This document shows positions 2,682 to 31,385 of a DNA stretch of 64,000 bases, piece after piece. The stretch covers positions 1-64,000 of the forward strand of contig LLEY01000061.1 of NCBI GenBank assembly GCA_001414485.1. Reading direction: 5' to 3'. A program made the position numbers and the translations under genes. This DNA comes from Calycina herbarum. Taxonomy: Eukaryota > Ascomycota > Leotiomycetes > Helotiales > Pezizellaceae. Every line of letters begins with the position of its first letter. Position 1 is the first letter of the stretch. The notes under the pieces were generated by a model. It saw nothing but the letters and a program-made list of their open reading frames with translations. It ran no database searches and was not told the DNA's origin.

Positions 2682-5600
2682 GGTGATGAGAGAGAGCTCT
2701 GGATTGGAGCTGTTGTTCTTAGGGATTGAAAGAGCTTTGCGCGTTGGGAGATGTGGGTTTTAGGGAGAGTCTCGGGGGTGAAGCGCGTAGGAGAGATTAA
2801 ACACAGTCTGCGGCATCAATGTTGTGGGAATATGGGTATGTTGGTTGTTGGTTGGAGGTTTGTTTCTTCTAACATCTTCGTTCATCCATACGGCGTAGAG
2901 CTCAAGACGAAGCTATCCCGAGGACATACCCCTGTATGACTTGAAATGCGGGGTCTGTCTGCATTGGGAGCGACTTCCTTTTTCGTTTGCTGTGCCCCTT
3001 TCTCAAAAACACGACCAAACATTTCGATATTGAAACCTCGAAGAATCTTGGGAAATGAATTCAAAAGATGGAGATATTTGAAGCTTTACAAATACCGAGA
3101 GAAGGAGAATAAAATCCAAAGAAAACGGCATCCTACCGGTATACACGGGAAACGCCACCATTTCTGACACTCCCGTCCCACGCGACCTTGCAAACAGTGT
3201 TCGTCCCAACAACATGTTCTTTCAAAACCAGCATCAACCCAACATCGCCTCATCGCCTCAAGTTTGAAGGATCATGGTAGGAATTTGATCACCACCAGGG
3301 ACTTGCTTCAGGTATACACCCAGCGCCAGCCTCGAAATTCGGATGTGGCCGAGGTTGGGGAGTTTCCATTAATAACGGGAATTGGATTCTTACCGGTATT
3401 GTTTATTATTTTTTAGACGCCGAGGGAATTGTTGACTGGGATTTTTGATGCGAATCTTCCTTCAAGCCGGAGGGAGATTAGGGAAGAGAGGCGGATGGAT
3501 TTTTGAATCATGTTTTTGGGTTGGAGGTCGTTAATTACTCGCGTTGTGTCATTTTGGTCATGGATGGCGGGTTTGTCGCCGAAGTCAATTGATGCATGGA
3601 TGGCGATCAATCCTCTGCGGCTCTTTTTCTTTCGTCTTCCGTTCTTATTGATGCTGTTATTTTCTGCTCCAGTCTTCTTCCAATTTATCCGCATGTATTC
3701 TAAATCTACTTTACTATTCCTAGTGGGACTTATTTCTATTTCTCTTTGATAGTGAAGAATTATTGTCGTCGTCATGTTGAGATTACTCTGCAGAGGGCAG
3801 TACCTTTTGGTTGCAGTAGCATCAGCAGCAAGTCTGAGGAGGATGCATTTGATATCTATTTGCGTTACTGTTTTAGGGGCCAATTAATTTGCACTACAGT
3901 AGTCTGTTGTCTTGTTGTCTTCATCTCAGCTTCTTCATTTCCTTCTCAGCTCTTCCTGAGCTGTCCGACACGAGACACAATACTACTTGTGGGTGTCATT
4001 GATACTCTCTGAACGATCAGATCTCGTCCAACCTCGGATAAGATACGCCTCTCTGAAATTGCTTCGGCCTTACAGGCTGTTTAATCAATTTCACATTCAC
4101 ATCATCGAGTAACCCTTCTCATCCATCGCCATGATATAACTATCCGTAGCGCCATATAGTGAAACTGTAACGTCCGGTCGAGCATGTCGGATACTCTTTC
4201 CAATCAACCGTCAGAAGACGTATCTTTTCTTTAGCCGGCCATACACATCTCCCAGATATCATCCTCCCATGTTCCCTCTTCCCCACACAATGTTATATCT
4301 ACCGGCACATGTGTTTTCTGCACTCCGCAATACCGAACTTGGGCTTGTTTGTACAATCCAACACAACAGATAGAGGCTCCTTTTGGAACGGAACGGGACT
4401 TGTGTCTCCGATTTCGTAGGAGGTTGTCTCTCTTTACCTGCGAACCGGCGAGGGTGGGATGAGTTTCACGCTTCCTCGATCTCGCTCTTGTGCTGAAATG
4501 CGCCAAGACATGCCATTAGGATACTATCCCAAAGCAAGATAGCGCGTCCGAGAAGCGGAACCGTCATGTCATGCATATGGCTGTGGCTGTAGTGACGATT
4601 CATAATGACGCCCCTCTTGGGCTCACTTGAACCCTCTCACCGCCGAGGACGCCACCTTTGACGAGTCAGTCTTCGCCCGCGAGATTCGGGCAGGCTGTCG
4701 ATGAGGGGCAAGGTTCTGTGCCCGTATCAATGGAAGCAGTGTTCTGCATCAATAGCCTCTCAGATTAGGGCGATAAGCCGGTGCTACTGACCAGTGAGAG
4801 GGAGGACAGTTCGTGGCCGCACGCGACAGTTTGCTTGGCTGGGTCGGGAGTCGGGCAGCACGGCGACGATCCAAAAAATGTATCTCCCAGGTGCCCAGGT
4901 GCCCAGGTGCCCAGGTTCGCCGTTCAGTCGGTTTCCTGTACACGAAGGAACTACGAAAGGTACCGGCCAGAGAGGCGGTGCGGCTCTACCTGATTTCATC
5001 GAGTCATCATGATGATCACGATGGTTCGAAGCTGATAGATAGCGGTTGTCGACGGCATAGTCCACAAGCCAAAGTAAGAAGTAATAAGTGACGAGGGGAG
5101 CTGTGTATTTACTCATGGAGGTTTTGGCAGAGAAATGGCCGAGGGGGCAGGCTGGTAGGCCACCCCGTATATGGCAACGAAGGAAGAGTCGAAGACCCGG
5201 TTTGGGGAGGGTCTTTTTTACCTTTGCCTCTGCAACAAGTTCCTTGCGAGGGACGAATCAAGGCGACGATTCCAGCCATTGGGGCCGATATGGTGCAGAT
5301 GGAGAGGGAATAGCACCAATCAGCACTGCCGAGTTGACCGTTTCTGCGTAGATGCTTGTAGGCTGGTGGAGCTCAGCGAGAAGACGAAGACCCTCTACGT
5401 CCCTCCGTCTGTGCTCGAGTCCATGTCCATCTTTGGTTTTGGTTGGAGTCTTGCTTAGTTTCCCCCTCCATCGACTCGACGCCAGTGACGCTTGCCGTAC
5501 CGTATGGATTTCTCCCCTCTGTAAGAAAGTACCTACTGTCCCTCAACACCATACTTTACATTTCTCCGTCGATATACCTCACTTGAGACTTCTTCACTTT

Positions 5601-7571: not shown

Positions 7572-9232
7572 AAGAATCCAAGTACATATTATGAACCCAC
7601 CGGTTACATACGTTACCTACATACCACCTACCCATCATGACGACGAACACGGCCGGAATTAGAAAGCATCGACATTTCTCTTTCGTTGAAGACGGTTCGT
7701 TTCCTTTTTTGGGAGGTACTGTTGGCCTCTTGTTTCGAGATCTTTTTTTTCTTGGGCGAATACTCCCCGATTGCTGCGTCATTACGTTGTTTGGTGGATA
7801 ATCTTTATATACCCCAGAATTATGTCGGATTTGTTGTTGTTTGTGTTTTGCTTCATCTGTCTTAGCGTTTTATTTTACAAGAGCCAGTATATCGGCAAAC
7901 CAACCAGATATTTGGGGGTTTAGCTTACGAGCCATTGAGCTTTTTAGACACGATTTTTCTTGTCGGGATTTTTTGTTGTTTTGATTTTATGTGCTTTTTT
8001 TTCCGAGGGAGGGTTGCTCAGGTATTTTATCTGTTCCGAATTTCGAGTGCGGGTTTAGCGTAAGTCAGAAATAGAAGGATGGAATGGGTAATGGATTGTG
8101 AATACACCTTTGCCTCTGGCCTCATTTGGGATGGCGTTGGGATTTATTTTTGCGGGATTTTCTTGCTCGGGCTTTGGTTTGGGTGAGGGATTTCTGGAGG
8201 GAAGGCATTTGCAACGGAGGGTTGATATCCAGGATGGACGGAGGTCTGGGCGGTGGTGGGGACTGGATGGTGGTGAGGTGTTTAATTTTGCCTTTAATTT
8301 GGTTCGGGGTGGTATGGATGGAGGATGGATGGCATTTAATTGCTGATGAAGATGGCAAAGAATTTGCTTGAGTGATGAATGGCTAGGAAGGGGGATGGAT
8401 AGGCAGGGGATGCATTAGATTTATTAACTAGCAATTGATTGTGTTGATCGTCCTTTTAATGTGCATGTGTGTCTCGGGGAAAAATCTTACTTGCAGGTAA
8501 GTCAATGTCTTTGCGTTGTGTCCGGTGACCTTTTCGGATTTTTCATCATGATGATGATGCTAGCTTTGCCGAATTAGGGAGGCGATTTTGGCTCATATCC
8601 CACGGGAATATCCCACGAGGAGGGGGGTTCGATTATGCAAGTGGCTTGCTTTAGGAGACGTTCCCCCACGTAAGATTGTGTGAGATTGGAAGGAGGGGGG
8701 GGGATGGGGTAATTGAGGGGTTGACGTTGACGTATTCTGCTTATGTTTTTTTTCTTTTTCTTCCTTCTCTCTTTACCTTTTTGTCTCTTTTGTCTTTTGT
8801 CTCTTTACTTTTTTGTCTCTTTTGTATATGGATGGGGAGGTAGAGTGAGGAGTGAGGAGTGAGGAGTGAGGAGTGAGGAGTGAGGAATTTTGGGATGGTG
8901 GCGTTTTGAGGATTCGACCCTGATTTTTGTTGGTTGTTGGAGTTCGTCCTGTATTATTTTGGGGTTTGGGGGGCGGGAGAGGGGTGAGGGGGCGGGAAGG
9001 GGGAAGGGGCGCGGGAACGTCTACCCCTCCCTCACCTTACTTGAAAGAGATTTCTTTTTTTGGTTTTTTTGGATAAGGAGTTGTATTTGAAGGTCTCTCT
9101 TTCTATCCTGAATCCTGCATATATTTCTGTCACTCTTCTGATTTTCACGGTGGGATCGGGATTTTCTTTTCCTTCTTTCTTTTCTTCAAAACGTGGTGCA
9201 GTTGGAAATCGAGAGGACTCAGAGGAGAGAAG
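7572..9232. other. Intergenic G/T-rich sequence and 3' UTR of the FYVE gene
   Basis: About 1.66 kb of strongly strand-biased (T/G-rich on plus) low-complexity sequence, including poly-T/pyrimidine tracts near 8745-8825 and a minisatellite at 8843-8884. Open frames here (for example 8098-8346) are composition artefacts. The first few hundred bases are presumably the FYVE gene 3' UTR, and the end is the promoter of the carbonic-anhydrase-like gene. Confidence 0.5.
8843..8884. repeat. Minisatellite, 6 x 7 bp
   Basis: Six perfect head-to-tail copies of GAGTGAG in non-coding sequence upstream of the carbonic-anhydrase-like gene. All copies are identical, so the array is either young or undergoing slippage; it would make a length-polymorphic marker. 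Confidence 0.9.
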
Positions 9233-14523: not shown

Positions 14524-16096
14524 ATTTGAAGGGTATGAGTGGTTATGGAATAGAGAGGGGGTGGAAGGGGTTGGGGTTGGGGTTTTGTTGTTGGAGGGTT
14601 TTTGATGTATGTTAAGTGGGGAAGCAACAAGGGAGCGGTGTTGTTGGATATAAATTTGGTTAACGTTATGAAAATATGGAATTGACTTTAGTCGCAGAAA
14701 AATGGGTGGGTATGTGTTTCTTGGGGGAATAACCGCACAGGACACCTGCAATACGCTTTTCTCATGGATAAGTTTTGCTCTTCGGATCGTCAAGTATGGG
14801 ATCAAACTCCCGCCTGATTGAAGCTAAGCTAATTGCTGTCAAGGTTTCGTTTACTGTCGTTTCTGGGGTGCTGTGCCGCTATGCATTAATGATGGATGAA
14901 CTAAGATAGGCATGTGGAACCTATTTTCGCGTGCTGGACATGTAGTGTGAGCGTAGGTTGTATTCGGGAATGAGAAAGGTTGAAGAAGCACACGGGACCA
15001 CCATTGAATGATTGTGGATTGAGGAATAGAAATGGTTGAAGAGGCAAAAATGTGGTTGAGTGGGAAGGCTATATATTACATCTCCAAAGCCAGGCCTACT
15101 AAATTCCTATCTTAATCTTAATTTGCGAACCTGATTCCAACCTAATGCTTTGAGTAAATGTTTTCACCAATTCTCATTCCCCATTGTATAAAATTTCTTT
15201 AAATCTATAGTCTCTCAGATCTAAGCGTACGTAAGAACAATTATTCTACTTTATTCGCTGGTTCTTAGTTATGATACAACCTGAGAGTCTTGAGTAAGCA
15301 TTTTATCGACTTTTGTTATTTATAATTATATTATTTATACTAAGTCGATTAAATAAGTTTCTTTGATAATTTAAATTATATAATACTACTTACTTTTTAA
15401 GCTTTTCCAGTTGACTTTTATTTAATATAATTATTCTCGAGTGCTTAATATAACTAAGTTAATGAAATATAGTTCTATGTTTGTTAAAAATACGTAGTAT
15501 AAGGTATCTGTCTATAAAATTAACCAAATATAATTATTTAAAATAGCTAGAAAAATTAGATTGAAGGAGGAAACTTCGAGATGTTTTAGAAAATGTAGCA
15601 ATAGATACTTATTCATACGATGTTTGTAAAATACTATTTTCTAGAAGGTCTAGAATGATTAGGTAGCTGAACAAAGTTAAGTGATTTAAGCACTTGACCT
15701 TTACTAGGGTTGTTAGAATAGAATCAGCTAGGTCTATAAATAGTGAATAAAGTAATTTAACTCCGAAAATTAACCGTCGCTTAAACTTCTGTATGCAAAA
15801 GTATAAATATTTTCTCTCAATCCACTCTCTTTCTCTCTCTTATCCACATCCTCTGGGCTCTCTAATTCACTAAAGCAAAACAACCACACCAAACAAGTCC
15901 AACAACCACAAAGTGGTGCAGATATCCCTCACTCAAGAATAATTAGATTTGGATGAAGCACCTGGAAGTAAGTACTCCCAAACAAACCACACTTCTCATT
16001 TTCATTTCATTCCCTTTCAACCCTTTTCTATTGGGAGTCAATAGTTAACAACAGAAGAAGAGAATAATATCAGGTCACACCACAATCAGAGCAACC
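14524..16096. other. Intergenic region with an AT-rich tract
   Basis: Unique-looking sequence to about 15,100, then an AT-rich tract at about 15,110-15,780 rich in TA dinucleotides and resembling the RIP-eroded transposon further on. I could not find terminal repeats or a coding trace in it. From about 15,800 composition returns to normal, with a CT-rich stretch (15,820-15,870) that probably marks the promoter or leader of the following small gene. A GTAAGT at 15,968 may be the donor of a 5'-UTR intron. Confidence 0.5.
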
Positions 16097-16507: not shown

Positions 16508-17525
16508 GTGGTTTTACGTCGTCTAGCCTTAGTTTGTGAGAAGTTGAGGGTAAGGGGAAAAGACTGGTGAATATGGGAGTCGACAACATGGCTTCGGGGA
16601 CCAAAAATGAAATTCCAGTCATAACGTCTTTTGGTTTTTCCTTGAAATGCCCGACCTAATCTTGGTTGACATGAGGCTTAAAGAGCGCATTCCAATATTG
16701 AAACACGACCGTACTCGAATTACCAACTACAACGAGGCTGATGCTAGTAAACTGTGGAAGAAAAAAACGCTCTCAAAAGGTCAGAAGCCAAGGAAAGTAA
16801 TTTTTGCGCCAATGGGCAGTTAATTGTTGCATTGCGTTTATAAGAATACTTAGCATACATGTCAGCGAAGGCCGTAAGCCCCCTCAACCTAGAAGAAGGT
16901 ACAAATATCGTTATTCGAAGACAATGCGCCTACCTTGCATGTGAGGCGGAGTTGGTACCCTGCTTTTTTAACTGGACAACTGCTCTATTCTCGTTATGAC
17001 GGACGACGTCGACTAAGAAAGCAGGAGTGACCTGGAGTCTCGTCGCGTGATTGTCGAGTTAAGCAGGGAAGAACGACCGATGCATCCTGCTGAAGGGAGT
17101 CACCTGGTAGCAGAGTTAGTCGACGAGTCGAGGCCAAGAGGGTCGACAAGTTAGGGAAGGAACGACCTCGACACCCCGACTCGACTATCCTTGCTCGACC
17201 ACTGCGACCGCGGAGTTCGCTCCTTCCCTCTAACTTGACGTCGACGTCGGCCTACCACGACGAGAGCTAAGGAGGAAGGCACGAATCCCTGTCAAAATCC
17301 AGCCTACCCCCCCTCTCGGATTCCCTCCCATATACGCGGTTTCTTGTTGTCGGAAACGTATCGCGGTGGTCTGAAACCCCTCGTTGGAACTTTGGAATCC
17401 TTCTTTCCTAGACAGAGTGGCCTTTAGCTATCTACCACGGCAATACCCAAGTCCAGCTTGTCTTTCAAGAAAAATGCCTTTTCCAGGTGCTTGAGGTAAA
17501 TAGTCTCATGCCACCTCACCTGCTA
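16508..17525. other. Gene-free flank of the transposon island, partly GC-rich
   Basis: About 1 kb up to the TA target site of the Tc1/mariner element. The part at about 16,970-17,290 is GC-rich with very many TCGAC/GTCGA words and is not RIP-eroded, in contrast to the adjacent element. No open frame, domain or terminal repeat was identified; origin unknown. Confidence 0.5.
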
Positions 17526-17640
17526 CAGTCAGTTGCGAGTTAAGCTTGAATTTGCCCACTTTTTTTATAATCCGAGCGTTTTGCGTACCGTAATCGTGCC
17601 TAGGAGACTGTATAGAAAATTAGCTAAATAACCACTTATT
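17526..17640 (+). repeat. Left terminal inverted repeat of the Tc1/mariner element
   Basis: 115 bp, inverted match to 27848-27962 with a small number of mismatches concentrated around positions 17609-17627. The outer 55 bp are identical. The TA target copy is immediately outside. Confidence 0.9.
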
Positions 17641-17716
17641 CGATTGATACCACTATACGTATAATATTAAGGCTTTTAAAGATATATCCTAATCCTTCTA
17701 TATATGTAGTTCTACT

Positions 17717-18724
17717 ATAGCACCTTAAATTGATCTCGATCGTCGCGCTGCGATTAAAATAGCGATTCGAGCCGGGGTAAGGTATAATAACACCAACTTT
17801 ACAGAGATAGCTAGAGAGTTTAAATATAGTAGCGTATCTATATATAATATTAAACAAGAGCTCTTAGTAGAAGTAGCTCTTGCTCCTTATCCTCGCTATA
17901 AAGCTAAACTAGGAACTAGAACCGCCTAGAATACTACAGTAGAGGCGTTTGTTTAAGAGCTCCTAGTATAAGATAATAAGCTTATAGTAGATAAGGTAGT
18001 AGATTATATATATAACATATTCGATCTTTATCTCTCGAAGTAGCAGATTTATAGGATATATAAGAGTATAGAGATATTATATAAGAAGTTAGACTACTTT
18101 ATAAGTTAGTAGGATCTTTAATTAATATAAGCGTAGAGGGATAAATTAGCTAAGTAGAAGGGAAAGAGACTTATATTCCTTAACGAATTTGCCTCTAATA
18201 AGGCTACTAGCGTACGACGATATAGATAGGCGCTAATTAGAATAAGAGCGTGCTCTAAGAGGTAGTTAAAACGATCGAGAGTTTAGAACGTATTACTAGT
18301 ATATATGCTCGATAGATAGCTATCGTCTATCGTATTCTAGGGAGCGATTATAGCTAAGATATTCGAGAAGTAGTTAGAGGAAGATATTCTACTATAATAT
18401 AATAGAGCGTCTAGTAATTAAGATATAATTATAATAGATAATTACTCTATCTACCGAAGCTTATAAGTAGTAGAGATATACGAGAAGAGAGAGGTAATAG
18501 TAGAGTACTTACTACTATATTATCCTTAATTTAATCCTATTAAATCAAGCTTTAAAGACCTTAAGACCTCTATCTACTAATACTATAAATAAGTGTATAT
18601 CTCCCCCGATTATAATAGCTTTAAAGGCTTTTTATAAGAGTAAATACTATATATAGGTAAAGGAGAGAGTGTAAAAAAGAGAGCTAAGAGATACTTTAAA
18701 AATTACTTTTATAATATTAAATAG
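17717..18724 (+). pseudogene. Tc1/mariner (DDE_3-like) transposase remnant
   Basis: A single reading frame of 335 codons, interrupted only by in-frame TAA/TAG. The start codon itself appears mutated (ATA-GCA at 17717, expected ATG-GCA). The N-terminus reads like a helix-turn-helix DNA-binding domain, with TNFTEIAREFKYSSVSIYNIK at its recognition-helix region. The catalytic core is recognisable: NEFASN near 18182 (first acidic residue changed to Asn), IIIDNYSIY near 18437 (second Asp kept), and YP-x-FNPIKSSF near 18540 (third acidic position now Lys). All three changes and most stops are G-to-A or C-to-T. It ends 'TAG' at 18722. The protein is dead; it would have cut and pasted the surrounding element between its inverted repeats. 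Confidence 0.82.
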
Positions 18725-18744
18725 ATTATATTATATATAATTAA

Positions 18745-19556
18745 TTTAAAGGATTACGCTCGAACTATATTATCTTAAGCTACTTCTCCTCTTATAAATA
18801 TCTACTTCTCTTATATACTCTCTACTAAGCGTAACTGTTCTAAAGGTTGCTATTAGAATTAAAGCTATCGTTATATTAATTCGAGGAGAGTAGGAGGTAT
18901 ATAAGTACTCTATAATCGTCTCTAAGAAGCTTATATATATAATCGAAGTAAGAGGTCGTTCTTTTAAGGAAGCTATAGAATATATAATCTCTAATACCCT
19001 CTACACGTGTATCTACTATCTTATACTAATATTCGATATTATATATAGGTTTTTTAAGATATAAGAAGTAAAGGTAAGTATAATCGTTTTACTTTTATAA
19101 AATTAGTATAAAAGAGGAACTAGATAATAAAGTAAATATATAAATAATAAAAGTATCCTCTTTTTAAACTATGTTCTTAAAACGTCTATTAAAGCTTATA
19201 TTTAGTATATATTTATAAAAGCTAATTTTAGTATATATTCGTTAATATCTAATATTATTAATTTAGTAGTTTTTCGTATATAGCGATAAGGCTCTGTAGG
19301 CGCTAAACCTAATTAGACTATAGCTCTATAGTACTAAACTCTTTTAGTAAATTTTAAATATTAAACTACTATACTCTTACTAGACGTTCTAGTAATCTAA
19401 AATCTTTTAAAAATCGTAATAAATCTATTATTTATTAAAATAAGCTAGTTCCTTCTTTATAGGTATAAATAATATTATAAAGAATCGATATTATAAGTTA
19501 AAAAATTAATTATAATTATTAAAAATTTCTTAATTCTTCTCTCTCTCTAGTATAGA
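18745..19556 (-). pseudogene. Second ORF of the Tc1/mariner element, C-terminal portion (beyond the copia insertion)
   Basis: Continuation of the long minus-strand frame that begins at 27816. When the copia element and one ATAGA copy are ignored, the frame runs on without a shift from 25635 into this segment, again broken only by TAA/TAG. About 260 codons; readable blocks include RAFSAYRA-like and IRDYIFYSFLKRTTSYFDY. It ends shortly before the convergent transposase stop at 18724; the exact natural stop is unclear. No domain recognised. Confidence 0.55.
19552..19556. repeat. Copia target-site duplication, left copy
   Basis: ATAGA directly before the left LTR; the identical pentamer follows the right LTR at 25630-25634. 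Confidence 0.9.
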
Positions 19557-19706
19557 TGTTAGTATAACTTAGTAGCTAATAGTATAATGTAAAAAGAGTA
19601 TATTATCGTTCGTATATACAGAGCAAAGTAAGCTGCTCTGTCTACTTAAATAGACCTTAAGCGAGAAGGTCACGTGGAGTGCTATTCACTCATTATTATA
19701 CCGACA
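19557..19706 (-). repeat. Copia 3' LTR (left)
   Basis: 150 bp, identical to the right LTR except at 10 positions; at all ten this copy has the T/A state of a CpA/TpG site (see findings). Contains TCACGTGG near the 3' half. Confidence 0.95.
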
Positions 19707-19849
19707 CTGGCACTTCTTTAAAACGGTGGAAGTTACTACCTAAAAATCATTAAAATCTCTTATCTTATTCAGCTAATCATAGCCCTCTATTCCATGTCCT
19801 CGACTAATAAGAGCGTCCTATTCAGAGGTCTTATTATCTCTTATTCCGT

Positions 19850-22800
19850 TCCACCTATTCTATAAGCTTAATATCCAGCTTACTAGTATCGATTAGCTTT
19901 TGTAGGGCGTTATAGCAGTCCTTCTTTGTCATAGCGTCCGCGGGATTACTCTTGCTATCGATCTACTTAATTTCGTCGATCTCTCTTAACTTATATGCTT
20001 CTTACAAGTACATAATGTCAATTATTAAGCGCTTCTCCTTAGTAGTACCTAGTTTGGCTATACATTCGTAAATAGACTTCGAATCGGTATATATAACAAG
20101 CGCGACCTTAAAGCCTAAGATGCTTTCTAGGGTTGATTTAATAGAAGCGGTAGCGTCGAATCTAGAGCTTATTATATATAATTCTAAGGCTAAAACGCTA
20201 CGAGTAACTCTTTTATACTTGGTAAAAGACTAATGTAAAATATTAGTATTATTACTCTTATCTATAAGTACTATAACGTACCTAATTTATAACGATAAGT
20301 CCTTGTTATTCGTAAAAGAGCTATCTGTAAAGGTGTATAATTTAAGCGAGTTTTGGTCTAATTTAACGTATTTAAGCCCTCTTATAGTATTATCGATTTG
20401 CTATTGAATTCGCTTATTAAGAAGGCTAATATCGACTTCTTATAGATCGGTTATCTAGGCAGTATATAATAAATCGAATACTGCTTCTAGCTGGGACACT
20501 ATTGTTAAATATGCTCTACGAGCACGCTAAGTAATATATTAATCCTTGGTGGATACTATATAGGAAGTGCTTTTAGTATTAGATATCTCTACTAGCACCT
20601 TTTATACTAATTTCAAGTGCTTTACGTAATCCTAGGTAAGCGTAAATAAGCCATCTATATACTTACTAATTAGCCCTCTATTAAACTAGATTAGATGGGT
20701 AATAGTAAGTTCTTATCTATCCTTTAACATAAATCCAGCTTCCTTAATAGCACTTTCTTCCTTAGTTATAAAAGCATCGTTTACAAGTATAAGAGTATCG
20801 TTAGTTTAAAGTCCTACTACTCTAAAAGGTCTATTTGATCGTTTAGTATATAAAAGACAGGGGTCGAAAGTAGATTGTTCTATTATAAGCTTTATAGTAT
20901 AGTGTTTATAGTATATTATAAACTAGTGGTTTCCAGCTTCTAGAATACTATATAATAGCTTAATAACTTCAAAGAACACATCCTCCTACTATAGATATCC
21001 CTTTAGTAGGCGTATAAAGAACTTTCGATTTAGTTCTATAAGTAACTAGGTGTATGCTTATGTAATATCCCGAATATAAACTCGTAAATCCGGGTATACT
21101 AACATAAGCACAAGGATAATTCTCTAACTTACTCTTTAGATAGTAGAGGCCTAGGTAAGGACTAAGGACTTTCTATTATTATTATATGCTTAGATAACTA
21201 GTCTTAACTTTACAAAAGCAAGTACTATACCCTCAAATTTGATATTATCTACGAACCGTAATCTAAAGATTCTAACGTTAGAAGGCAGGTTATCCTAGGT
21301 AACGATCTTAAAGACGCCTCGATCAGTTAATCCACTGATTTCCTTCTAGCGTGATTCCACGTATATTATACTATTAGTAGCTATAAATACTTTAATATTA
21401 TATTCTTCCTTAATAGACGAAAGAAAAGTCTCGATATCTTCGATAGTAACGTAGTCCTCAGTATTATCAATAAAAGCATCTATCTCTTAGAACAAGATCT
21501 CGAAAGGCCTATTTAGTAGTCTTAGGTACTTTCGTAGTCTTCCTCGTCCACGCTTCTAGACTGGTTCTATTATCGATTCTAGAGGATCAGTAAGGTTATC
21601 TTATCGTACCTATGTCTAGTAAAGTTAGTATCGAGTTTATAGGCGAGATTAAAGCTCCTCTTAAGGCTCAGTTCCATCGTCTATTCCATCTCTATAAGAT
21701 TATAGTATTGTCTTAAACAACGGTGCCGTTCTAGAAATCTCTCCAACCGCCGGTACTGTTCTAGAGTCTTTAAAGATTTCTTCGAAATATAGCTTTACTA
21801 CTATAGATCTAAATCTTATAAGACCACTTAGCAGCAACACGATATAGTCTTTATTTTCGATTCCTTATAGTAAGAAGGGACCGGTCTAGGATTTTTAATA
21901 CTTATGCTAGACGAGTATATTAGTATTTAGTAGTAAGTCCTTGATTCCACTAGGTAACGGACCGTTCCAGGTGTTAAGGGTATCCGTAATTTAACACTTT
22001 ACAAGTAATTTATATACTTCTTTAGTAGCCTTTATATAAGTCTCGGATCTCTAAGATATCGATCGTAAGAGGGTATCACTTTCAGCTATTCTAGGATAAG
22101 CGCTATATATAAGTAAAGTAGGTACTAAACCATCAGGTCCTACTATGTCGTTAATAGCTCTAAAAGCTATTTAGAGGGCGGAGGCCTTTACGAAGCTAGG
22201 TTATTATTCCTAGATAATTAAGTAAATACGGCGAATCGGTCTATAGTATTGTTCTACTATACTAATAGAGTTATATACTTCTACTAGTATAGTTTTAACC
22301 TTAATTCCTATCGAATTTACATACCTCTTAAACTCCTTTATAACGAAGTTCTTTCTAGCGTCTATAGTAACATAGTCGGGAGGTCCTAAGTAGGTGTTAA
22401 TCCAGCACTTTTGAAAGGTCTCCTAGGCACTCTTTACACTCATGTCTAGCAGGAAGTCTCCGGATTAATATCAAGTTCCTTAATCTATAATATATAATAC
22501 TAGCTTTCCTTCTAAAAAGAAGACATCTATAATTATATTATAATTAAACTTAATATTATTATAAAGTGTAAATTTAAATCGACTAGGTAACTTTCCGTGC
22601 TTTTAGTAATACTTATAGTATTTAGTAAGGTGTTATAGAATATCTTACTCGACGTCGTAACTAGCACGCTCGAGTACACGCTGTAAGCGTAGTATAGATA
22701 GGTAACTAAAGCACTTATAGAGGCGCCTAATATTAACATCTGTAAGGTAATATAAGGATTCTTATATAAGGTTATATATAGCCTTATTTTAGAGCAGAAA

Positions 22801-25015
22801 GAGGTGTCTGAATCGTCGTATAATTCTAAAACATTCTACTTCCTAACCCTTTCCGTCTTCTTAAATAAGAACGTTCTAGAGGTTATTAAGCGAGACGTAT
22901 AAACAGTCTATATCGTTAATATATATAATAAATAGTGTATCTGAATATATAACATAGAATTCCGCATAGCCGATTAGTATACTAATCGTGATCGATCCTA
23001 GAAAGGATACGTAGCCTTTACTAAATTATATACTAATCTAGCCTTTAGTACTTTCGTCGATAGGGATATTTTAGACGTGTTTAGCGTACGCTAAGTATTA
23101 ATCGTATCCTATACTCGACTTTCCTCCTACGCCGGTATCGATTATAACTCTAAAGAAGTAGTCTCGTACGTACTTCTTAGCAGTAGACGTAAATACCTCT
23201 TCTATAAACTTATAAGATATAGTGTCTAGAATTAGTAGTAGAATAAATCTGCTAAAAGCATAATCTTATACTAAGTTTATTAGACTAGCTATAAGAGTCT
23301 AGGCACTCGAATTGTCGATATATCTAATAGAAGTAATTAAGTAGTAGATAACCTCACCGTTAGAATCACTTTTATAATCTATTATAATCGTCTAGAGTGT
23401 TTCGGATATATCTTCCTCTTCTATACGTTCTATAATAGTAATATAAGTACAATAGATCTTTTTAACAAATCTACTGTCTTTTCTATAGAAGCTGCCTCTA
23501 TTACTCTTTTGCTATTTAGCAAAGTAACGATCCTACTCTTCTTAAGTATAATTCTAGAATCAGTAGCCTTCCTTTCCACATATATAACACTTATTATTCT
23601 TTCTAGATTTATACTAGTAGTAGTTATAAGAGTTACTATAAGAGTTACTAGAATTGTTATACTTATAGAAGTAACAATCGGTTATTAAGGTTTCGGCATT
23701 TAAGGCGTTGTAGCTTACTTCGTAATTGCGAATAGAGCCTCTTAAAAGGGTAATAGTGCTTTAAAGTAACGAGTTTTATAGTAAGGTCGAGTATATACTT
23801 CGGCATTCTAGTACTTCCTTATATATAATAAGTAGCTTATTAGCTAATTGTCTATTGCTTTACATATCCTTAGGAAGTCTATAGCGAAGTTCTTCTAATT
23901 TAGATAGCATCTCCTCAAAGCACTAGCTAGGTGTCTTTTCCGAATATTCTAGCTTAGCTTTAGTTCGTAAGAATGTAACACGATTCCACTCAGAGGACTA
24001 ACCTCTAGAGTATAGCTCATCCTCAAAATATAACTAGATAGCAGTAGAAAGAGCGTCGTATAATTGATTGGTTCCTTCCTTAAAGACACTAGTATAAAAG
24101 TGGTTTAATACCTAACCCTTAAGCATAATCAGGAAGGCAAGGTTATATGCCAAGGGTGATATACTACAACGATTACATATATCCTTAAATATTCTCGACT
24201 TAAGCTTAAAGTTATCTCCCTTACTACTATACTTTTGTTCATCTAAATATAACTTTATAAGGTTGCTAAGTATAAAGGCAGGGTTGCCTATCTAGCTATT
24301 GCCAGAATAGCTGCCTATAGCTGGTTGGCTTACAAGAGCGTTCTAGGTTACAAAAGCTGCCGGTGGAGTTATAAGAGCTACTACTGGTAGAGTTATAAGG
24401 ATAGGAATATTGCTTACAAAAGCAGTTAAAGTAGTATTCGAAGTAGAAGGATTCGTAAAGGCGTTTAAAGTAGTAAGGTTCTAGTACCCTAGAAGAAGCT
24501 TAGAGAATCGGTTAGGGTGTTCTTTAATATACTTGTATCTCGTAGCCATCTCTCGTAATTAAGTTTGCAATTTGTATACTTAATCTCTTAATTCCTAGAT
24601 CGGCTATTTAGGCTTTATAAGTTCTTAAGACGTATTATAGAGTGCTTTTGATATAATCGCCTTATGTCCATCCGTCTCTACCTACACGCCTCTATTACGT
24701 AGTAGCTTACGCATCTTAATAAGGGTGTTTCTTCCTATGTTTACGAACTTAGCTTTAGGCCATTCGTCAAAGTCTATAAGATATATCTCCCATAGATAAT
24801 CGTCGTCTATTCTATTAACATCGTATTCCTCTATCTTTTTATTTATATAAGCCGTGGCTTCCTTGTCTTCAACCCACTATGGTTATAGTAGTGCTATGGT
24901 ATCGAAAGTGTTAAGGGCGTCGATAAAGTTATCAGTGCTTGAAGTGGTGGATGATATCTTGTCTTATACTAGGTGAATAGTACGTCGTAATCTTGTTTTA
25001 TAATTTTGTTTTTAT
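19850..25015 (-). pseudogene. Copia Gag-Pol polyprotein remnant
   Basis: Read from about 25015 down to 19850 on minus. Recognisable in order: Gag with MATRYKYIKEHPNRFSKL (24549 onward, though coding-like sequence begins upstream), a CCHC knuckle beginning CYICGKEG near 23575, a retropepsin-like VIIDTGVGGKSS near 23130, reverse transcriptase with LRVYIRDIT (near 21090) and FIRLLKG, and RNase H with LYTFTDSSF and VTRSVLALELY (near 20190). The integrase region between protease and RT is too eroded to read with confidence. Dozens of in-frame TAA/TAG codons interrupt it, nearly all explicable as CAA, CAG or TGG after C-to-T or G-to-A change. Confidence 0.8.
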
Positions 25016-25132
25016 GTGAGTTACTCTTTTAATGCTTATGAGTTATTAAAATCGGGTGAATTGTCTTTGTACAATAGCCGTTCTAAAGGGTTCAAGAGCG
25101 GTCGCAAGGGCGTTTGCAAGTAGGGTGGTATT

Positions 25133-25299
25133 ACAAGTCGAAGAGGTTGTAAGGTTATATTAGTTATATTGTAAGTCGAAGAGGTTGTAAGGTTATATTG
25201 CAATTCGGAGAGGTTGCAAGGTTGTAAGAGTGTTGTAATTCGGAGAGGTTGCAAGGTCGTAAGGGTGTTGTAATTCGGAGAGGTTGCAAGGTTGTTGTA
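25133..25299. repeat. Imperfect tandem repeats in the copia 5' untranslated region
   Basis: Five copies of a roughly 29-37-bp unit with core AATTCGGAGAGGTTGCAAGG, the first two shifted to AAGTCGAAGAGGTTGTAAGG. They lie between the 5' LTR and Gag. Translated on minus they make a spurious repetitive open frame (LQPLRI/CNLSELQ), which I do not regard as a gene. Confidence 0.75.
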
Positions 25300-25479
25300 A
25301 CTGTACTGTACGTCCCAGAGTTTGTAGTGGTATTGTCGGGGGTGTAACCAGTAGAAGGAGTCTCTTCCGAGAAGAGGAGTCTACTTTGCACAACTACGTA
25401 ACTGTACGTAAGCTTACGATTCCGAGAACCGCGATACGTATAGTCAGTTTTTCTGATCTGCGCGCGCGACACTGATCAG

Positions 25480-25629
25480 TGTTGGTATGACTTGGTGGCC
25501 AATAGCATGATGCAAAAAGAGTATATTATCGTTCGTGTATACAGAGCAAAGTAAGCTGCTCTGTCTACTTAAATAGACCTTAAGCGAGAAGGTCACGTGG
25601 AGTGCTATTCACTCATTATTATGCCGACA
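25480..25629 (-). repeat. Copia 5' LTR (right)
   Basis: 150 bp, TG...CA ends, followed by the ATAGA target copy at 25630-25634. Less mutated than its partner. Confidence 0.95.
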
Positions 25630-25634
25630 ATAGA

Positions 25635-27816
25635 CCTTCTAAATTATATTTATAAGATCTTATATATCCTTATCCTTACTTCTACTACTACTTATATTAC
25701 TTTTAAGATTAATAATCGTCTCTCTTTTATACTCTTAGGCGTCCTTTAGAGGCTTTTAAAGAGGCTCTTTTTAGGTCTCTTTTCAAGGCTCGTCTTAGAG
25801 CTCGTCTCGAGACTCTTATATAAATCTATCCTTCTTATATACTCTCTTAAAAGTACTAATATCCTTAGATAACGTCTTCTATATACTAAGAGCGATACCT
25901 AAATATACTAATTCTACTATACTTAATTTACAAAAGTCTTTAAAGCTTAGGAATTGTTCCTAAGTTACTTAGATATAATCGTTATATACTTAAATACTAA
26001 ATTAAGAAAGATTATATATACCTTTATACTATACCTAAAACATATGCTATAATTCTACTATAGACCTTACTTTATACTTATTATAATCTATAGTACTCGA
26101 GAGACGATAGGAGAAAGCTATAGGTTACTTAAATAGCGTTATAAGTAGTAGAAGAGAGCGTAGAAGTATAGGCTTCTTAATAGTATTAACCCTTGAATTA
26201 TCTCTAGTAACTACTAGAGAATTAAAGTATACGTTTAAAAGTATACTATATCCCCTACTTATATATACTAGCGGAAGTGCTATTATATCTCTCTTTATCT
26301 CTCCTTTTTTATTCGTATATATTAAATTTGTAATAACAAACGTAGGAGGAGTAGTCGTTGATCCCTAGCCTCTATATACTCTCTTTACCTATAACTTTAT
26401 ATCTAAATACCTTATTATATAGTAATTAAGAGTAGTAGGTTATACGTAGCACGTCCTAGAGAAGTTGGTACACGTATCTTTAGTATATCTAAAGTTCTTT
26501 TAAATCTCTGCCGTCGCTCCTAGCACTCCTACTTACAACGCTCTCTTAATCGCTAAATCGTTAAGCTGCCTACTTGTTATAGTAGAGCGTGCTCTCTTCG
26601 CCTTTTATGCCTTCTTTTAAGTATTCCTTTTATCCCCCTTTCTCTTACGTAAGAGAGACGCCGCCGCCGCCTTCCGCGCTGCCTTCTTATCTATATACCT
26701 CTAAGCTTCGCTATCGTTATCGCTTAAAGATTCGATAAAGGATAGATCGCTCTCGTTACTCGATTTGTTTACTACTTCGTCGTATATGTTAGTAACGCCC
26801 TTAGGCTTTTTAGCGCTCTCTTTCTCTAGAGCCTTTATAGCTTTTAAATTAACAGGATTATTCGGATCGTTGTTTACGCTATAATATACTACTAAAACGT
26901 ACTAGATTATCTTCTCTCCGATCACCTTAGTATACCCTAGAGCCTTCTTAAAGTCGTCCTAATCTCTCTAATTACTAATATCGTGTCTTTTAGGATTGCT
27001 CTTTATACTTTAAATAGCTGTTTAATAATTAGGATCTCGGCGCCCTTAATTACACCTAAAATAGCTATTAATAAATCTATCTACTACTCTATATATATTT
27101 GCTACTATATACGCGAAGTCTACCTCTCGATCCTCAAGCCCTAAATTTAAGAGCTTATTAAGAGTCCTCTCTTATATACTATCTACGTACGTCTTCACCT
27201 TAATCGCTATAACTAGCGCTTTTAAGGCATTTAATACTTTAGAGAGGGTCTTCTTTCTAGGAGTCTTTTAAGCTTTATTACTATCACTCTTAGTAAGCTC
27301 GGTAGATAGAAAGGTTCTCTTCTTTTTAGACTTCGCTAACAAGGCTATAGAATCCTCCTCCTTAAAGATTAATATATATTTAGCCTCCTTTTTAGCTTCT
27401 TTTCTCGCCCTCGCCCTCGCCCTTGCCCTCGCTGTCTCTCTCCCCCTCCTTTCTCTTATCTGGTATTCCTCCTCTCTTTCAGCATCGGCTCTTTCCTCCT
27501 CTATATATATCGTATTATCTTCCTTAATCGATTATTATAATTTAGCGGCTTTAGAGAGGGAGGTAATTAAGAGTATATGAGAGCCTAGTACTGTTAAAGG
27601 GCTCTTACTAGGAAGGCGTGCTTCTAGAGCCTTTGAGCTAGCTCTTACTAAAGCTCCTATATCGATTATAACCTTCCTTAGTAGTGGTGGTGGTGGTGGT
27701 ATATCGGTGGTGGGAGAGGGGGCCTTTTTGGTAGCTTTTTTAGTGGCTTTTTTAACTTTGGGGGGTGATTTGGGTAACTCTGGCCCAGGGCCTTATGAGC
27801 TTATATTCCTAGGCAT
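25635..27816 (-). pseudogene. Second ORF of the Tc1/mariner element, N-terminal portion, unknown function
   Basis: Starts with ATG at 27816-27814, about 30 bp inside the right inverted repeat, and stays in one frame for about 727 codons to the copia insertion, then continues at 19556. The only breaks are TAA/TAG/TGA typical of RIP. Composition: a Lys/Pro/Thr-rich N-terminus (KVKKATKKATKKAP, then a run of prolines), an Arg/Glu-rich helical block with alternating Ala-Arg, an acidic Ser block (ESLSDNDSE) followed by a basic block (KKAARKAAAA, LRKRKGDKR). A more globular second half includes RSTITSRQLNDLAIKRAL and PTTLNYYIIRYLDIKL. It is not a second copy of the transposase and I recognise no domain. 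It may be a DNA-binding accessory or a captured host gene. Confidence 0.6.
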
Positions 27817-27847
27817 ATTGGAGTATCAAAGGTATCAAGAACAAGGC

Positions 27848-27962
27848 AATAAGTGGTTATTTAGCTAATATTTCTATAGGGCCTCCTGGCACGATTACGG
27901 TACGTAAAACGCTCGGATTATAAAAAAAGTGGGCAAATTCAAGCTTAACTCGCAACTGACTG
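27848..27962 (-). repeat. Right terminal inverted repeat of the Tc1/mariner element
   Basis: 115 bp, inverted copy of 17526-17640, with TA target copy at 27963-27964. Confidence 0.9.
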
Positions 27963-28293
27963 TACTCGTGGGTGAGCTTCCTTACCCACAAATTTCAATT
28001 TTCCTATTCATCCACGATCGTATGTCAAACTATCGAAATACAATAAACTTGAATTTCTTTCTAAATTCTATGTAATAACTTACCCGAAAAATAAATGCAA
28101 TAAGAACAAGACCTAACGTAGAATCAAACGAACCAATTAAATTACAACATCCCAAACACATCCCCTTTAGACACCAGCCTGCACAAAGAACCCCCCAGTT
28201 CCAAGCAACACCTCGAACAATACACCCATTTAGAATCATGACCGCTTCTCTAATGTAGGAAACTCGTTTCCATTGCACATCGAAAAGTCATAC
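27963..28293. other. Short intergenic flank
   Basis: 330 bp between the transposon end and the stop of the secreted repeat protein; probably that gene's 3' UTR. Nothing else is seen. Confidence 0.5.
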
Positions 28294-29370
28294 TTACAAG
28301 ATCGCAACGGCAACCAAGCCAGCAACGAGACCCCATCCTGTAATCATGTTGGCACTAGCAGCACCCGTAAATTGGCCAGGAGCGGCAGTCGCAGTCTGAG
28401 ATGGAACGATAACAGTGTTGATAGAAGAGTTCGATCCAGAAGGTGGGGTGATGATGCCGGTAGGAGTCACCGGGCAGACAGTTGTGTATGCAACTTCAGA
28501 GGAGGTGACCACGATTGGAGCAGTGGAATAAGGACACTTGGTGACAGTTGGTGCGCAAGAGGAGATCGTGACAACTTTGCTGGTGTAAACTATTGAAGTC
28601 GTGAAGTTGGCACCACGGGAAGAGTAGCAAGCAGCCTGGTTTTGAGGTGGGAGAGAAGCACAATCACCACCGATTGGGCTTGGTGTTGAAGTAGGTGTAG
28701 TAGACGAGCCCGAGGCATAACAAGCTGCTTGATATTGAGGTGGGAGAGATCCGCAACCGCCAACAGATGCTGGAGTTGCGGTTGATGTAGCTGAGGCTTT
28801 GGATTGGCATTCGGCTTGGTACTTTGGATCAACACCAGCACATCCACCAATGGAGGGAGTTGCAGTGGCTGTGGAAGAACGAGATGCATAGCAGGCGGCC
28901 TGGAACTGAGGTGGGAGAGAACCACACGCGCCTCCAATTGCGCTGGTTGAGCTTGATGTTGCCGATTGCTTGGAAAAACATTCTTCTCGGTATTTCGGGT
29001 CAACACCAGCACAACCGCCAATGATGAGTGGTGTTGGGGTGGCAGTGACGGCAGAAGAGCGAGATGCGTAACAAGCGGCTTGAAATTCAGGTGCAAGTGA
29101 ACCACAATTACCCCCAATGACGCTGGCAGTCGAGCTTGGGACCACAGAGGAGGAACGAGATTTGTAGCATTCGGCTTGATTTGCTGGAGGAAGCGAAGCA
29201 CAATCGCCTCCTATAACAGATTTGGTTGCACTTGGTGCAGCAGATGAGGATCGAGATTTGTAGCAGTCGGCTTGGTTGGCTGGAGGAAGTGAAGCGCAGT
29301 CTCCTCCGATCAATGTTTGGGCTTGTGTGCTGGCGATTGCCAAAGCGAGGGCGATGAATGAGGTCTTCAT
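28294..29370 (-). CDS. Secreted, GPI-anchored repeat protein with eight Cys-pair units
   Basis: Single exon, 358 residues. Signal peptide: MKTSFIALALAIASTQAQT. Residues about 20-270 hold eight units of about 30 residues, each with two Cys: six of the type GG-x-CxSLPP-x-x-QAxCYxSRSS and two (units 4 and 6) of the type GGCAGVDPKYxxEC, joined by Ser/Thr/Pro/Ala linkers likely to be O-glycosylated. A further Cys-containing domain (SSCAPTVTKCPYST, TVCPVTP) follows, then a Ser/Thr/Pro-rich stalk. The C-terminus is SAN-MITGWGLVAGLVAVAIL, a plausible GPI-attachment site and hydrophobic tail. It is probably exposed on the cell wall or plasma membrane. The stop codon overlaps a perfect intron donor (TTGTAAGTATG), so a spliced form with a different tail is possible. 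The repeats are unlike CFEM or hydrophobin Cys patterns; I do not recognise a named family. Confidence 0.82.
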   Translation of the reverse strand: MKTSFIALALAIASTQAQTLIGGDCASLPPANQADCYKSRSSSAAPSATKSVIGGDCASLPPANQAECYKSRSSSVVPSSTASVIGGNCGSLAPEFQAACYASRSSAVTATPTPLIIGGCAGVDPKYREECFSKQSATSSSTSAIGGACGSLPPQFQAACYASRSSTATATPSIGGCAGVDPKYQAECQSKASATSTATPASVGGCGSLPPQYQAACYASGSSTTPTSTPSPIGGDCASLPPQNQAACYSSRGANFTTSIVYTSKVVTISSCAPTVTKCPYSTAPIVVTSSEVAYTTVCPVTPTGIITPPSGSNSSINTVIVPSQTATAAPGQFTGAASANMITGWGLVAGLVAVAIL

Positions 29371-31385
29371 GTTGATTAAGCGTGAAATGATATTGTAACA
29401 GCGAATGTTATAATGAAATGGTTGAAAGTCGAGAAACGGAGAGAGAAAATTCTAAGGAGAAAGTGAAGAAAAGATGGGAAGATTGAAAGACTGTTGTTGA
29501 TGATGATGAGTGCAAATAGAGGAGATTCTGGGAAACTTATATATCTTCTACTCATCTACCTCCTCATCTATGCAGTCAAACTCAGCGACATTGAAGTGTT
29601 GGTGGCGTCGCTAAGCTCGGTGCTATTCAAATTCAGGAGCCCACGATGCGGTATTCCCATGGCCTGTGGGAAATGACAAGGTCTGCTATTCCTACAACAT
29701 ATGTTTTAGCAGTGAAATGGCGGTGATAGAAAGTCCTAGGTATCTTCACATTGGGTAGCAGATGCAAGGAATGCGGTGAGTGTGGCTTGCGTAGAGAAAG
29801 TCATCGCGCTTGGCATTTGTGCGCAGACAACTATTTCGCAAATTATCATACTACAACAACTTGTTTTTGGATACCAAATTTACTTTATCAAAGTAAACTT
29901 TGGTGCAAAAAGAGCTTGGTGTTTCGTAGATACTCAAATATCGTCCTCGCTGATTATTTCTCTCAAGGAGTGATTGTTTCTTGATAATTTTATAAATGTA
30001 GTATATTGGAAGCCCAAGATGTTCGGGCTCTACTTCAGTTTTCTCAAAGTTGAGGTCGGCGATGCTATTCTAAGTCCGAGGTCGGCGATTACCTTGGGAA
30101 GACGTAAAATCAAAATAGGAAGTTGTAGAAAGTTAAAACAAGGGGCAACAGGCAGCGAACAAAATGAAACTATTCTGCACCTCTGGATAAGTATTCAGCT
30201 GCTTACAAGTTGTTGATGAGGAAGTTAAGCAGTCAGCAACACCTGATGAAGTCTTCATTCAGCGGGGCTCTTGTGATTACGATTGGCCAGCTTCTTTCGG
30301 CGGAGTGCGAACCCTGTCTGGAAGTCTGCATCAGAGACTTGGCAGTTAAGCTTAAACTATCTCTCAGCCCAAGTCCGGGGAACCCGTTAGATTCTTGTAT
30401 TACGATGTATGCGGTGTAGATATTGCTGAATCATTAACCTGTTTAGAGCTTTGAAAGTGCGAGTAGCGAGTGTTTTTTAGAGGTGGAATTGAGAAAAAGT
30501 CATGTCGAGATTTCGATGTGAGACTTCCCAAACAAAACTTAATACTTTGCAGCTGTGTATTTATCAACGGTCGAAGGAGTGTAACCGAAATTTATCTGAG
30601 AGAATCTCAAGCCACATCTTGAAGTTGGCAGGGGCGATAGAAACTGGCGTCCTTTTGAATACACCCCTTTCGCCAAAATAGCCGAGAAATTCACCTGATT
30701 CTTCGACCCCCTTCGCAGAAGAGGTTTAATTATTCCAGAAAATTTGAGAGAGAGAAAAGCAATGGTGGTTCCGGAAGAAAATCCGAATCTTGGAGATCCA
30801 GTGTCGATATATGGGACTAAAAACGCGGCAGCAAATAACTCCCCAATTTCTCGTTTTCCAAGGATTGAATCGAAGAAACTCCGCCCACCAGGGGGTGTAC
30901 TCATTCGTGAGACAGGTTATGGTTGGTGCTTAGGAACACCACAACTTACCTGAGCAGCAAACAATCAGGGCAAACCCTCTCTAAAAAAATCCAGCTAATA
31001 CTCTACTAGAGATATTCTAGCTGGAAAGGGTGAAAGGTGCAAGTAAATTCAATAATTTTGCGGTGGCTTAGTGTTCCTGAACCAAGCATAATCTGTCTCA
31101 CGGATGAGTACACCCCCTGGTGGCCTAGATATTTGAGATTTAATTGTCGTACGATGTCTAGGTCAATAATATCCATGACCCGAGAGAAAAGTTAGAACAA
31201 CGGGAGCTATGTACAGCCGCTTTTGTTGTAACCGCGAGAGAGGAAAAAACCAGCGCCCTCAGCATTTGCAACCAAGAGACCAAGAATAATAAACCAGACT
31301 CAGTCAGCAAACGACTTCGGAAGATTCTCTGACCTCTCATCCCACGACTTTAGCCGCCCGATCCTCTTCTTCCGCTTTCCTCCAA
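29371..31385. other. Intergenic region holding a foldback repeat
   Basis: About 2 kb between the divergent secreted-protein start (29370) and the 3' end of the NB-ARC gene. The first few hundred bases are the promoter of the secreted protein. Open frames (29751-29984 on plus, 30539-30904 on minus) show no domain. The minus frame at 30539-30904 begins inside the left arm of the foldback repeat and could be a gene remnant. Confidence 0.5.
30885..31123. repeat. Foldback / palindromic element with 60-bp inverted arms
   Basis: Arms 30885-30945 and 31064-31123 are inverted copies starting CCACCAGGGGGTGTACTCAT and agreeing at roughly 50 of 60 positions. Inside, CCAGCTAATACTCTA and its inverse (TAGAGATATTCTAGCTGG) form a second, central inverted repeat near 30992-31025, so the whole 239 bp could fold into a long hairpin. 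No clear target duplication flanks it. Each arm includes an outward-reading ATGAGTACACCCCCTGGTGG. Confidence 0.75.

What the first reader, a model, noticed from the sequence alone, without database searches (positions are those of the whole stretch)
17526..27962. Tc1/mariner element carrying a second, convergent ORF of roughly 1,000 codons with no recognised domain
Ordinary Tc1/mariner elements encode one transposase. This one is 4.36 kb without the nested copia. It has a normal-sized transposase frame on plus (335 codons) and, facing it, a minus frame that starts about 30 bp inside the right inverted repeat. That frame stays open (apart from RIP-type stops) for about 727 codons to 25635, then about 260 more after the copia insertion. 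Frame conservation over 3 kb in such eroded DNA argues it was a real gene within the mobile unit. It has a Lys/Pro-rich start, Arg/Glu helices, an acidic Ser block and a later globular part. It could be a captured host gene, a regulator or a mobility accessory.
Basis: partly seen in the sequence, partly recalled or inferred. Interest (0 to 1): 0.75.

Follow-up and report, generated by a model that had tools for sequence, protein, structure and literature searches.

The report
Dead two-gene Tc1/mariner transposon family
This is a dead family of jumping genes in a fungus that, besides the usual transposase, carried a second, oppositely directed gene of about 740 codons with no relative found in the searches made; comparable two-gene elements have been published, so it is an unusual variant rather than a new kind.

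Summary
The core observation holds, with one correction. A Tc1/mariner element lies at 17526-27962: 115-bp TIRs (95% alike), TA outside both, a DDE_3 transposase on plus, and ORF2 facing it on minus. The genome holds ORF2 stretches on 24 contigs. Of 13 copies laid side by side, 12 carry ORF2 and middle nearly whole, in the same order; 1010 of 1072 variable columns are only C/T or G/A (RIP). ORF2 looks like a real gene: 20 stops in codons 1-569 against 55.3 expected (0 of 500 shuffles as low), the most protein-like composition of six frames, and 7 of 7 indels shared between copies are multiples of three. But it is about 740 codons, not about 1,000: it ends just past the nested LTR element, and the further 260-codon frame lies in an indel-prone spacer, out of register in 3 of 4 uninterrupted copies (mixed in the fourth). 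ORF2 matched nothing in Pfam, PDB sequences or the protein set, and in its own genome only the family; RIP blunts all these searches. Its transposase groups with two others here, one of which (C341) also faces a second ORF, but homology of the two second ORFs was not shown. A two-ORF Tc1/mariner is published from Pyrenophora tritici-repentis, so: new variant of a known kind.

The parts
17524..17525 (.). left TA target-site duplication
   Evidence: sequence; TA outside 22 of 22 TIR ends that a pattern scan found in the window and fetched copies
17526..17640 (+). left terminal inverted repeat
   Evidence: 95% to the right end over 117 bp including TA; 77 nt at 99%
17698..18724 (+). transposase gene, RIP-broken; start approximate, DDE_3 match about 18170-18574
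   Evidence: Pfam DDE_3 E 3.8e-07; one indel event in 1011 bp among the copies compared
   Evidence: 11 of 40 indel events are multiples of three; no protein-like frame; against: the minus frame there is mildly stop-poor, 18 against 30.1, 2 of 500 shuffles as low, with an open run of 76 codons, z 4.4
19519..19554 (-). last codons of ORF2 and its probable stop, left of the nested element
   Evidence: same reading ending TAA TAA in L009, L010, L011, L014 and in the window
19557..25640 (.). nested insertion with 161-bp direct repeats (later, private to this copy at this place); not studied
   Evidence: repeats; the other copies run through or are interrupted elsewhere
25636..27816 (-). ORF2, first 727 codons
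27848..27962 (-). right terminal inverted repeat
27963..27964 (.). right TA target-site duplication
   Evidence: sequence

Best explanation
A family of Tc1/mariner transposons (DDE_3; DD34E spacing by my reading) whose full unit, about 4.4 kb, encodes a transposase and, convergent to it, a second gene (ORF2, about 740 codons) starting about 32 bp inside the right TIR. Shown: TIRs, TA duplications, both frames, collinear copies, RIP erosion, and ORF2 as an ancestral part of the unit. Supported: ORF2 was kept in frame while the family was active. Inferred: the transposase moved the unit by cut and paste, and ORF2 made an element-encoded nuclear accessory protein (Lys/Pro- and Arg/Glu-rich start, acidic Ser block beside a Lys/Arg block) that helped transposition or expression, for example by binding the ends or chromatin or by opposing silencing. 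Nothing here chooses among these roles. RIP and nested insertions then killed the copies examined.
For: 12 of 13 copies laid side by side carry both TIRs and at least 2427 of 3050 columns of middle plus ORF2, same order. 1010 of 1072 variable columns are only C/T or G/A; RIP indices shifted. Stops 20 against 55.3 in codons 1-569, 0 of 500 shuffles. ORF2 frame has the most typical amino-acid composition of six frames in both blocks. Indels shared by two or more copies: 7 of 7 multiples of three in ORF2 (two 18-bp ones may be one event). L033: no indel over 530 columns of ORF2, 17 over about 840 bp of the middle. Five of seven other intact transposases picked in this genome sit in units 1.25-1.44 kb long with no room for a second gene. 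The nearest other transposase, C341, also faces a second ORF.
Against: No classic third-position excess of transversions (94/60/79 by codon position, including 148 bp before the ATG). An antisense frame has 18 stops over codons 1-569 and a 102-codon open run. Composition of ORF2 is no closer to typical than shuffles in codons 1-569 (z 0.2; z -2.1 in 570-727). Outside repeat tracts 8 of 19 indels are triplets, not significant. 26 of 36 stops are stops in every copy compared. No homologue, domain or usable structure, so the accessory role is unproven.
Confidence: 0.55

Rival explanations
1. ORF2 is a captured host or foreign gene carried as a passenger between the TIRs and multiplied by transposition, without a role in it (transduplication).
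For: A Tc1/Mariner family with a sequestered ORF, 46 members, is described in Pyrenophora tritici-repentis (PMC3538342, passages).
Against: No parent gene in the own genome: 49 of 49 matches at E <= 10 lie on contigs with family copies. Older, diverged copies also carry ORF2 pieces with the TIR (L031, L034, L035, L037, L039, L040), so it is not a recent pick-up.
Confidence: 0.35
2. ORF2 is a chance open frame in AT-rich, RIP-eroded DNA, or the antisense shadow of something else.
For: Antisense frame equally stop-poor over codons 1-569 (18 stops); no third-position signal; codons 570-727 not stop-poor alone.
Against: 0 of 500 shuffles reach 20 stops; triplet indels among shared events; composition singles out the minus frame among six.
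Confidence: 0.07
3. ORF2 is a Fanzor/TnpB-like protein, as in some Mariner elements.
For: Fanzor1 proteins occur in Mariner elements (PMC3627910, passages).
Against: No Pfam family at E <= 5 in 11 of 11 copies and no solved chain at E <= 5; I see no C4 zinc finger in the reading (by eye). RIP could hide one.
Confidence: 0.02

Closest known systems
Tc1/Mariner element with a sequestered second ORF in Pyrenophora tritici-repentis (Manning et al. 2013, PMC3538342; passages read)
   Same: Fungal Tc1/mariner; an extra ORF between the TIRs, copied many times (46 members, 31 nearly identical with both coding regions).
   Different: Its extra ORF carries PF08946 (osmosensory transporter coiled-coil); ORF2 matched no Pfam family. 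Orientation and size of that ORF were not in the passages seen. Those copies are largely intact, these are RIP-eroded.
Fanzor1-bearing Mariner elements (PMC3627910; passages)
   Same: Mariner transposase plus an additional protein within the TIRs, TA duplications.
   Different: The extra protein is TnpB-like; ORF2 matched nothing.
Ciliate Tec/TBE elements (PMC7325037; passages)
   Same: Tc1/mariner-type transposase with extra ORFs, one of them on the complementary strand.
   Different: Three ORFs, TIRs of about 700 bp, a site-specific recombinase; different host.
C341 locus of the same genome (L029)
   Same: DDE_3 transposase nearest to this family's, facing a second ORF about 60 bp away.
   Different: The second ORF is about 415 aa, belongs to a family with 108 members in the protein set and showed no profile similarity to ORF2; no TIRs found there.

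Membership tests
Tc1/mariner superfamily | TA target-site duplication | tested here: met
   TA outside 22 of 22 TIR ends found by pattern in the window and fetched copies
Tc1/mariner superfamily | terminal inverted repeats | tested here: met
   115 bp, 95%
Tc1/mariner superfamily | DDE/D transposase of the Tc1/mariner type | tested here: met
   Pfam DDE_3 above cut-off. DD34E spacing is my count; in the window copy the first and third triad places read N and K by my alignment with C341
Ordinary one-gene fungal Tc1/mariner | a single ORF in a unit of about 1.3-2 kb | tested here: not met
   about 4.4 kb with a second ORF; compare and Verticillium elements of about 1.9 kb with one ORF (PMC3441728, passages)
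Pyrenophora two-ORF Tc1/Mariner | second ORF with PF08946 | tested here: not met
   no Pfam family at E <= 5; that the library copy holds PF08946 was not checked, and RIP may hide a match
Fanzor/TnpB-bearing Mariner | TnpB-like protein with RuvC-type residues and C4 finger | tested here: not met
   no Pfam or PDB match; finger judged by eye only
Second-ORF family of C341 | detectable homology to the 108-member family | tested here: inconclusive
   profile comparison no better than a reversed control; the ORF2 profile is thin (Neff about 1.3) and RIP-degraded
Transduplicated host gene | a non-mobile homologue in the host | tested here: not met
   none among 49 matches at E <= 10 in the own genome

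The most novel reading that the evidence does not exclude
The window family, C341 and C102 are one lineage of fungal DD34E-type transposons that travels with a convergent, fast-changing accessory gene, perhaps an end-binding or anti-silencing factor; ORF2 and the C341-type family would be far-diverged forms of one gene or repeated acquisitions into the same slot.
Probability: 0.25. Interest if true: 0.65.

Novelty: new variant of a known kind. Interest (0 to 1): 0.4.

Why it matters
Tc1/mariner elements are the textbook one-gene transposons. A fungal lineage that kept a second gene would let one ask what a minimal transposon gains from an accessory protein, above all in hosts that destroy repeats by RIP. 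The case also shows how copies of one family can separate a real ORF from a chance frame in RIP-eroded DNA, and where that fails (the 260-codon tail).

Tried and rejected
Homologues of ORF2 in the large protein set: two alignment searches, no hit (at E <= 0.01; at E <= 5). In both, about 8000 candidates filled the list, so low-complexity words may have crowded out true relatives. Viral contigs with the ORF2 alignment A4 and with the C341-family alignment A2, and bacterial/archaeal contigs with A2: none. Structure of ORF2: mean pLDDT 32, no use. The C341-type second ORF folds better (mean pLDDT 72) but has no PDB match at E <= 0.001 among 582 at E <= 10; the weak ones have low TM-scores and were set aside.

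By eye the C-termini of ORF2 and of the C341 family look alike (a VA-x-EQFL-like stretch, then GIAL). Profile comparison gave nothing above a reversed control, so this is dropped as evidence. A possible remnant of the C341-type ORF beside the C102 transposase scored E 0.82, not significant.

A third-position test for selection on ORF2 gave 94/60/79 transversions: no support.

Papers: seven answered searches; passages only of eight papers (PMC4188875, PMC3441728, PMC4112212, PMC3562529, PMC7325037, PMC3627910, PMC3538342, PMC3017866). They gave one fungal Tc1/mariner with a second ORF (PMC3538342) and no description that I recognise as this ORF2. Closed journals are not covered.
Full report
WHAT IS THERE. 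The window lies in a 68.8-Mb genome of 379 contigs. Its RIP signature and the relatives of one of its proteins point to a filamentous ascomycete; I do not know its name. At 17526-27962 sits a transposon with 115-bp inverted ends, 95% alike, with TA outside both. The left part encodes a transposase that matches Pfam DDE_3 in spite of 30 stops in the stretch read. The right part encodes ORF2 on the other strand, from ATG 27816 down to 25636, where an insertion with 161-bp direct repeats begins.

OTHER COPIES. The genome was searched with the left end, the right kilobase, ORF2 and the transposase (the lists are capped, so counts are lower bounds). ORF2 matched 62 stretches on 24 contigs (my count). 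I fetched 20 stretches and laid 13 copies, the window's included, on one copy that measures 4.88 kb with a 462-bp insert. Order and orientation agree: transposase, middle, ORF2. Twelve of 13 show both TIRs and cover at least 2427 of 3050 columns from the middle through ORF2. The thirteenth (C112:522000-530000), of which only part was fetched, covers 1208. Insertions lie at different places in different copies.

WHY IT IS DEAD. Of 1072 variable columns (those seen in at least six copies), 1010 show only C/T or G/A. TpA/ApT is 1.50 and 1.68 in the two halves against 0.68 in the flank 28000-64000, and (CpA+TpG)/(ApC+GpT) is 0.22 and 0.37 against 1.29. This is the mark of RIP (established knowledge). 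Of 36 stops in the window's ORF2, 10 are sense in some other copy, 9 of them with a codon from which RIP makes a stop; 26 are stops in all copies compared. Saturation explains the 26 but does not prove it. Every copy examined is broken.

IS ORF2 A GENE. For: codons 1-569 have 20 stops against 55.3 +/- 6.8, 0 of 500 shuffles as low. The ORF2 frame is nearest of the six to typical protein composition in codons 1-569 (0.139; others 0.220-0.309) and 570-727 (0.239; others 0.387-0.530); the transposase frame passes the same test (0.214; others 0.286-0.380). In four copies, window included, ORF2 matches as one frame over at least 717 of 727 codons. Indels seen in two or more copies are multiples of three in 7 of 7 cases (two 18-bp ones may be one event, and several lie in repeat tracts). 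Of all 57 indel events 31 are triplets; without those private to the most decayed copy L031, 26 of 38 (p about 1e-5 against one third); outside repeat tracts 8 of 19, some of the rest being one-base pairs that cancel. Copy L033 has no indel over 530 columns of ORF2 but 17 over about 840 bp of the middle. Against: transversions by codon position 94/60/79, no third-position excess; an antisense frame with 18 stops and a 102-codon open run over codons 1-569; ORF2's composition no closer to typical than shuffles there (z 0.2); codons 570-727 not stop-poor by themselves (16 against 20.5). On balance I hold ORF2 as a gene of the unit at about 0.9.

HOW LONG IT IS. In the four copies read whose ORF2 end is uninterrupted the frame goes on 12 codons past the window's insertion point and meets TAA TAA, hence about 740 codons. 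That stretch is mildly stop-poor (18 against 30.1, 2 of 500 shuffles as low) and has a 76-codon open run (z 4.4), but it is not the most protein-like frame there (0.417 against 0.327 for the best), and 11 of 40 indel events are triplets. I read it as spacer. An intron joining the two is not excluded.

WHAT ORF2 MIGHT BE. Pfam found nothing in 11 of 11 copies at E <= 5, PDB sequences nothing at E <= 5, the protein set nothing. In this genome the 49 matches at E <= 10 all lie on contigs with family copies, 47 with stops. AlphaFold gave no usable model. The readings show a Lys/Pro-rich start, an Arg/Glu/Ala stretch, a Ser/Asp/Glu block next to a Lys/Arg block, and a C-terminal half. A nuclear protein that binds nucleic acid or chromatin is my inference from composition. 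Function as an accessory of the element is my first choice, a passenger gene the close second.

A LINEAGE OF TWO-GENE ELEMENTS? Outside the family the window's transposase is nearest to those at C341 (62 bits) and C102 (51 bits). A tree splits these from seven other transposases with support 100/100, but the program warns of long branches and of odd composition in the RIP-eroded rows. C341 has an open transposase frame of 380 codons and, facing it about 60 bp away, a second ORF broken by a frameshift. That ORF has 108 relatives in the protein set, many from Pseudogymnoascus, Colletotrichum, Leptodontidium, Cadophora and other ascomycetes. In this genome it was found only there (C-terminal piece at E <= 1). 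No TIRs were found at C341. Comparison of ORF2 with this family gave nothing above a reversed control, and C102 has no clear second ORF. So the clade and the facing ORF at C341 are results; a shared second gene is not shown.

CONTROL. Of seven other transposases with open frames, picked from 149 DDE_3 matches, five sit between TIRs 1.25-1.44 kb apart (in two the outer TIR touches the edge of the fetched stretch), with room for one gene; for the other two the stretch ended too near the gene to tell. So the two-gene unit is unusual in this genome.

KNOWN OR NEW. Manning et al. 2013 describe in Pyrenophora tritici-repentis a Tc1/Mariner family of 46 members with a second ORF between the TIRs (PMC3538342, passages). 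Fanzor-bearing Mariner elements and ciliate Tec/TBE elements also carry extra ORFs (PMC3627910, PMC7325037; passages). My searches found no description that I recognise as this ORF2. Hence a new variant of a known kind.

Noticed in passing
L029:1215-2463 (+) and 2524-3666 (-), C341: An open Tc1/mariner-type transposase frame facing a second ORF (one frameshift) of an ascomycete family with 108 members in the protein set and no Pfam domain in the members scanned. AlphaFold gives a fairly confident model (mean pLDDT 72) with no clear PDB match.
   Followed up: partly
P0107 (Phialocephala subalpina protein): A C2H2-type protein whose C-terminal third is 78% identical to the C-terminus of the C341-type second ORF: possibly a fusion of host gene and element gene, or a gene-model error.
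   Followed up: no
window 28294-29451 (-): A 385-codon open frame just right of the element, with a signal-peptide-like start and repeated Cys-containing units; no Pfam match at E <= 1.
   Followed up: partly
window 8001-9000: Strong strand asymmetry (GC skew 0.47, AT skew -0.29), with short tandem arrays at 8746-9017.
   Followed up: no
window 15001-16000: A separate AT-rich block (GC 0.308) left of the element, perhaps another RIP-eroded repeat.
   Followed up: no
window 25129-25295: A 35-bp tandem repeat, 2.8 copies at 93%, inside the nested insertion near its right direct repeat.
   Followed up: no
L010, L011, L016-L018, L022-L025 and other copies: Copies of this family are often interrupted by further insertions, some sharing the 462-bp segment seen in C314:322246-327126: the family lies in nested repeat blocks.
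   Followed up: no
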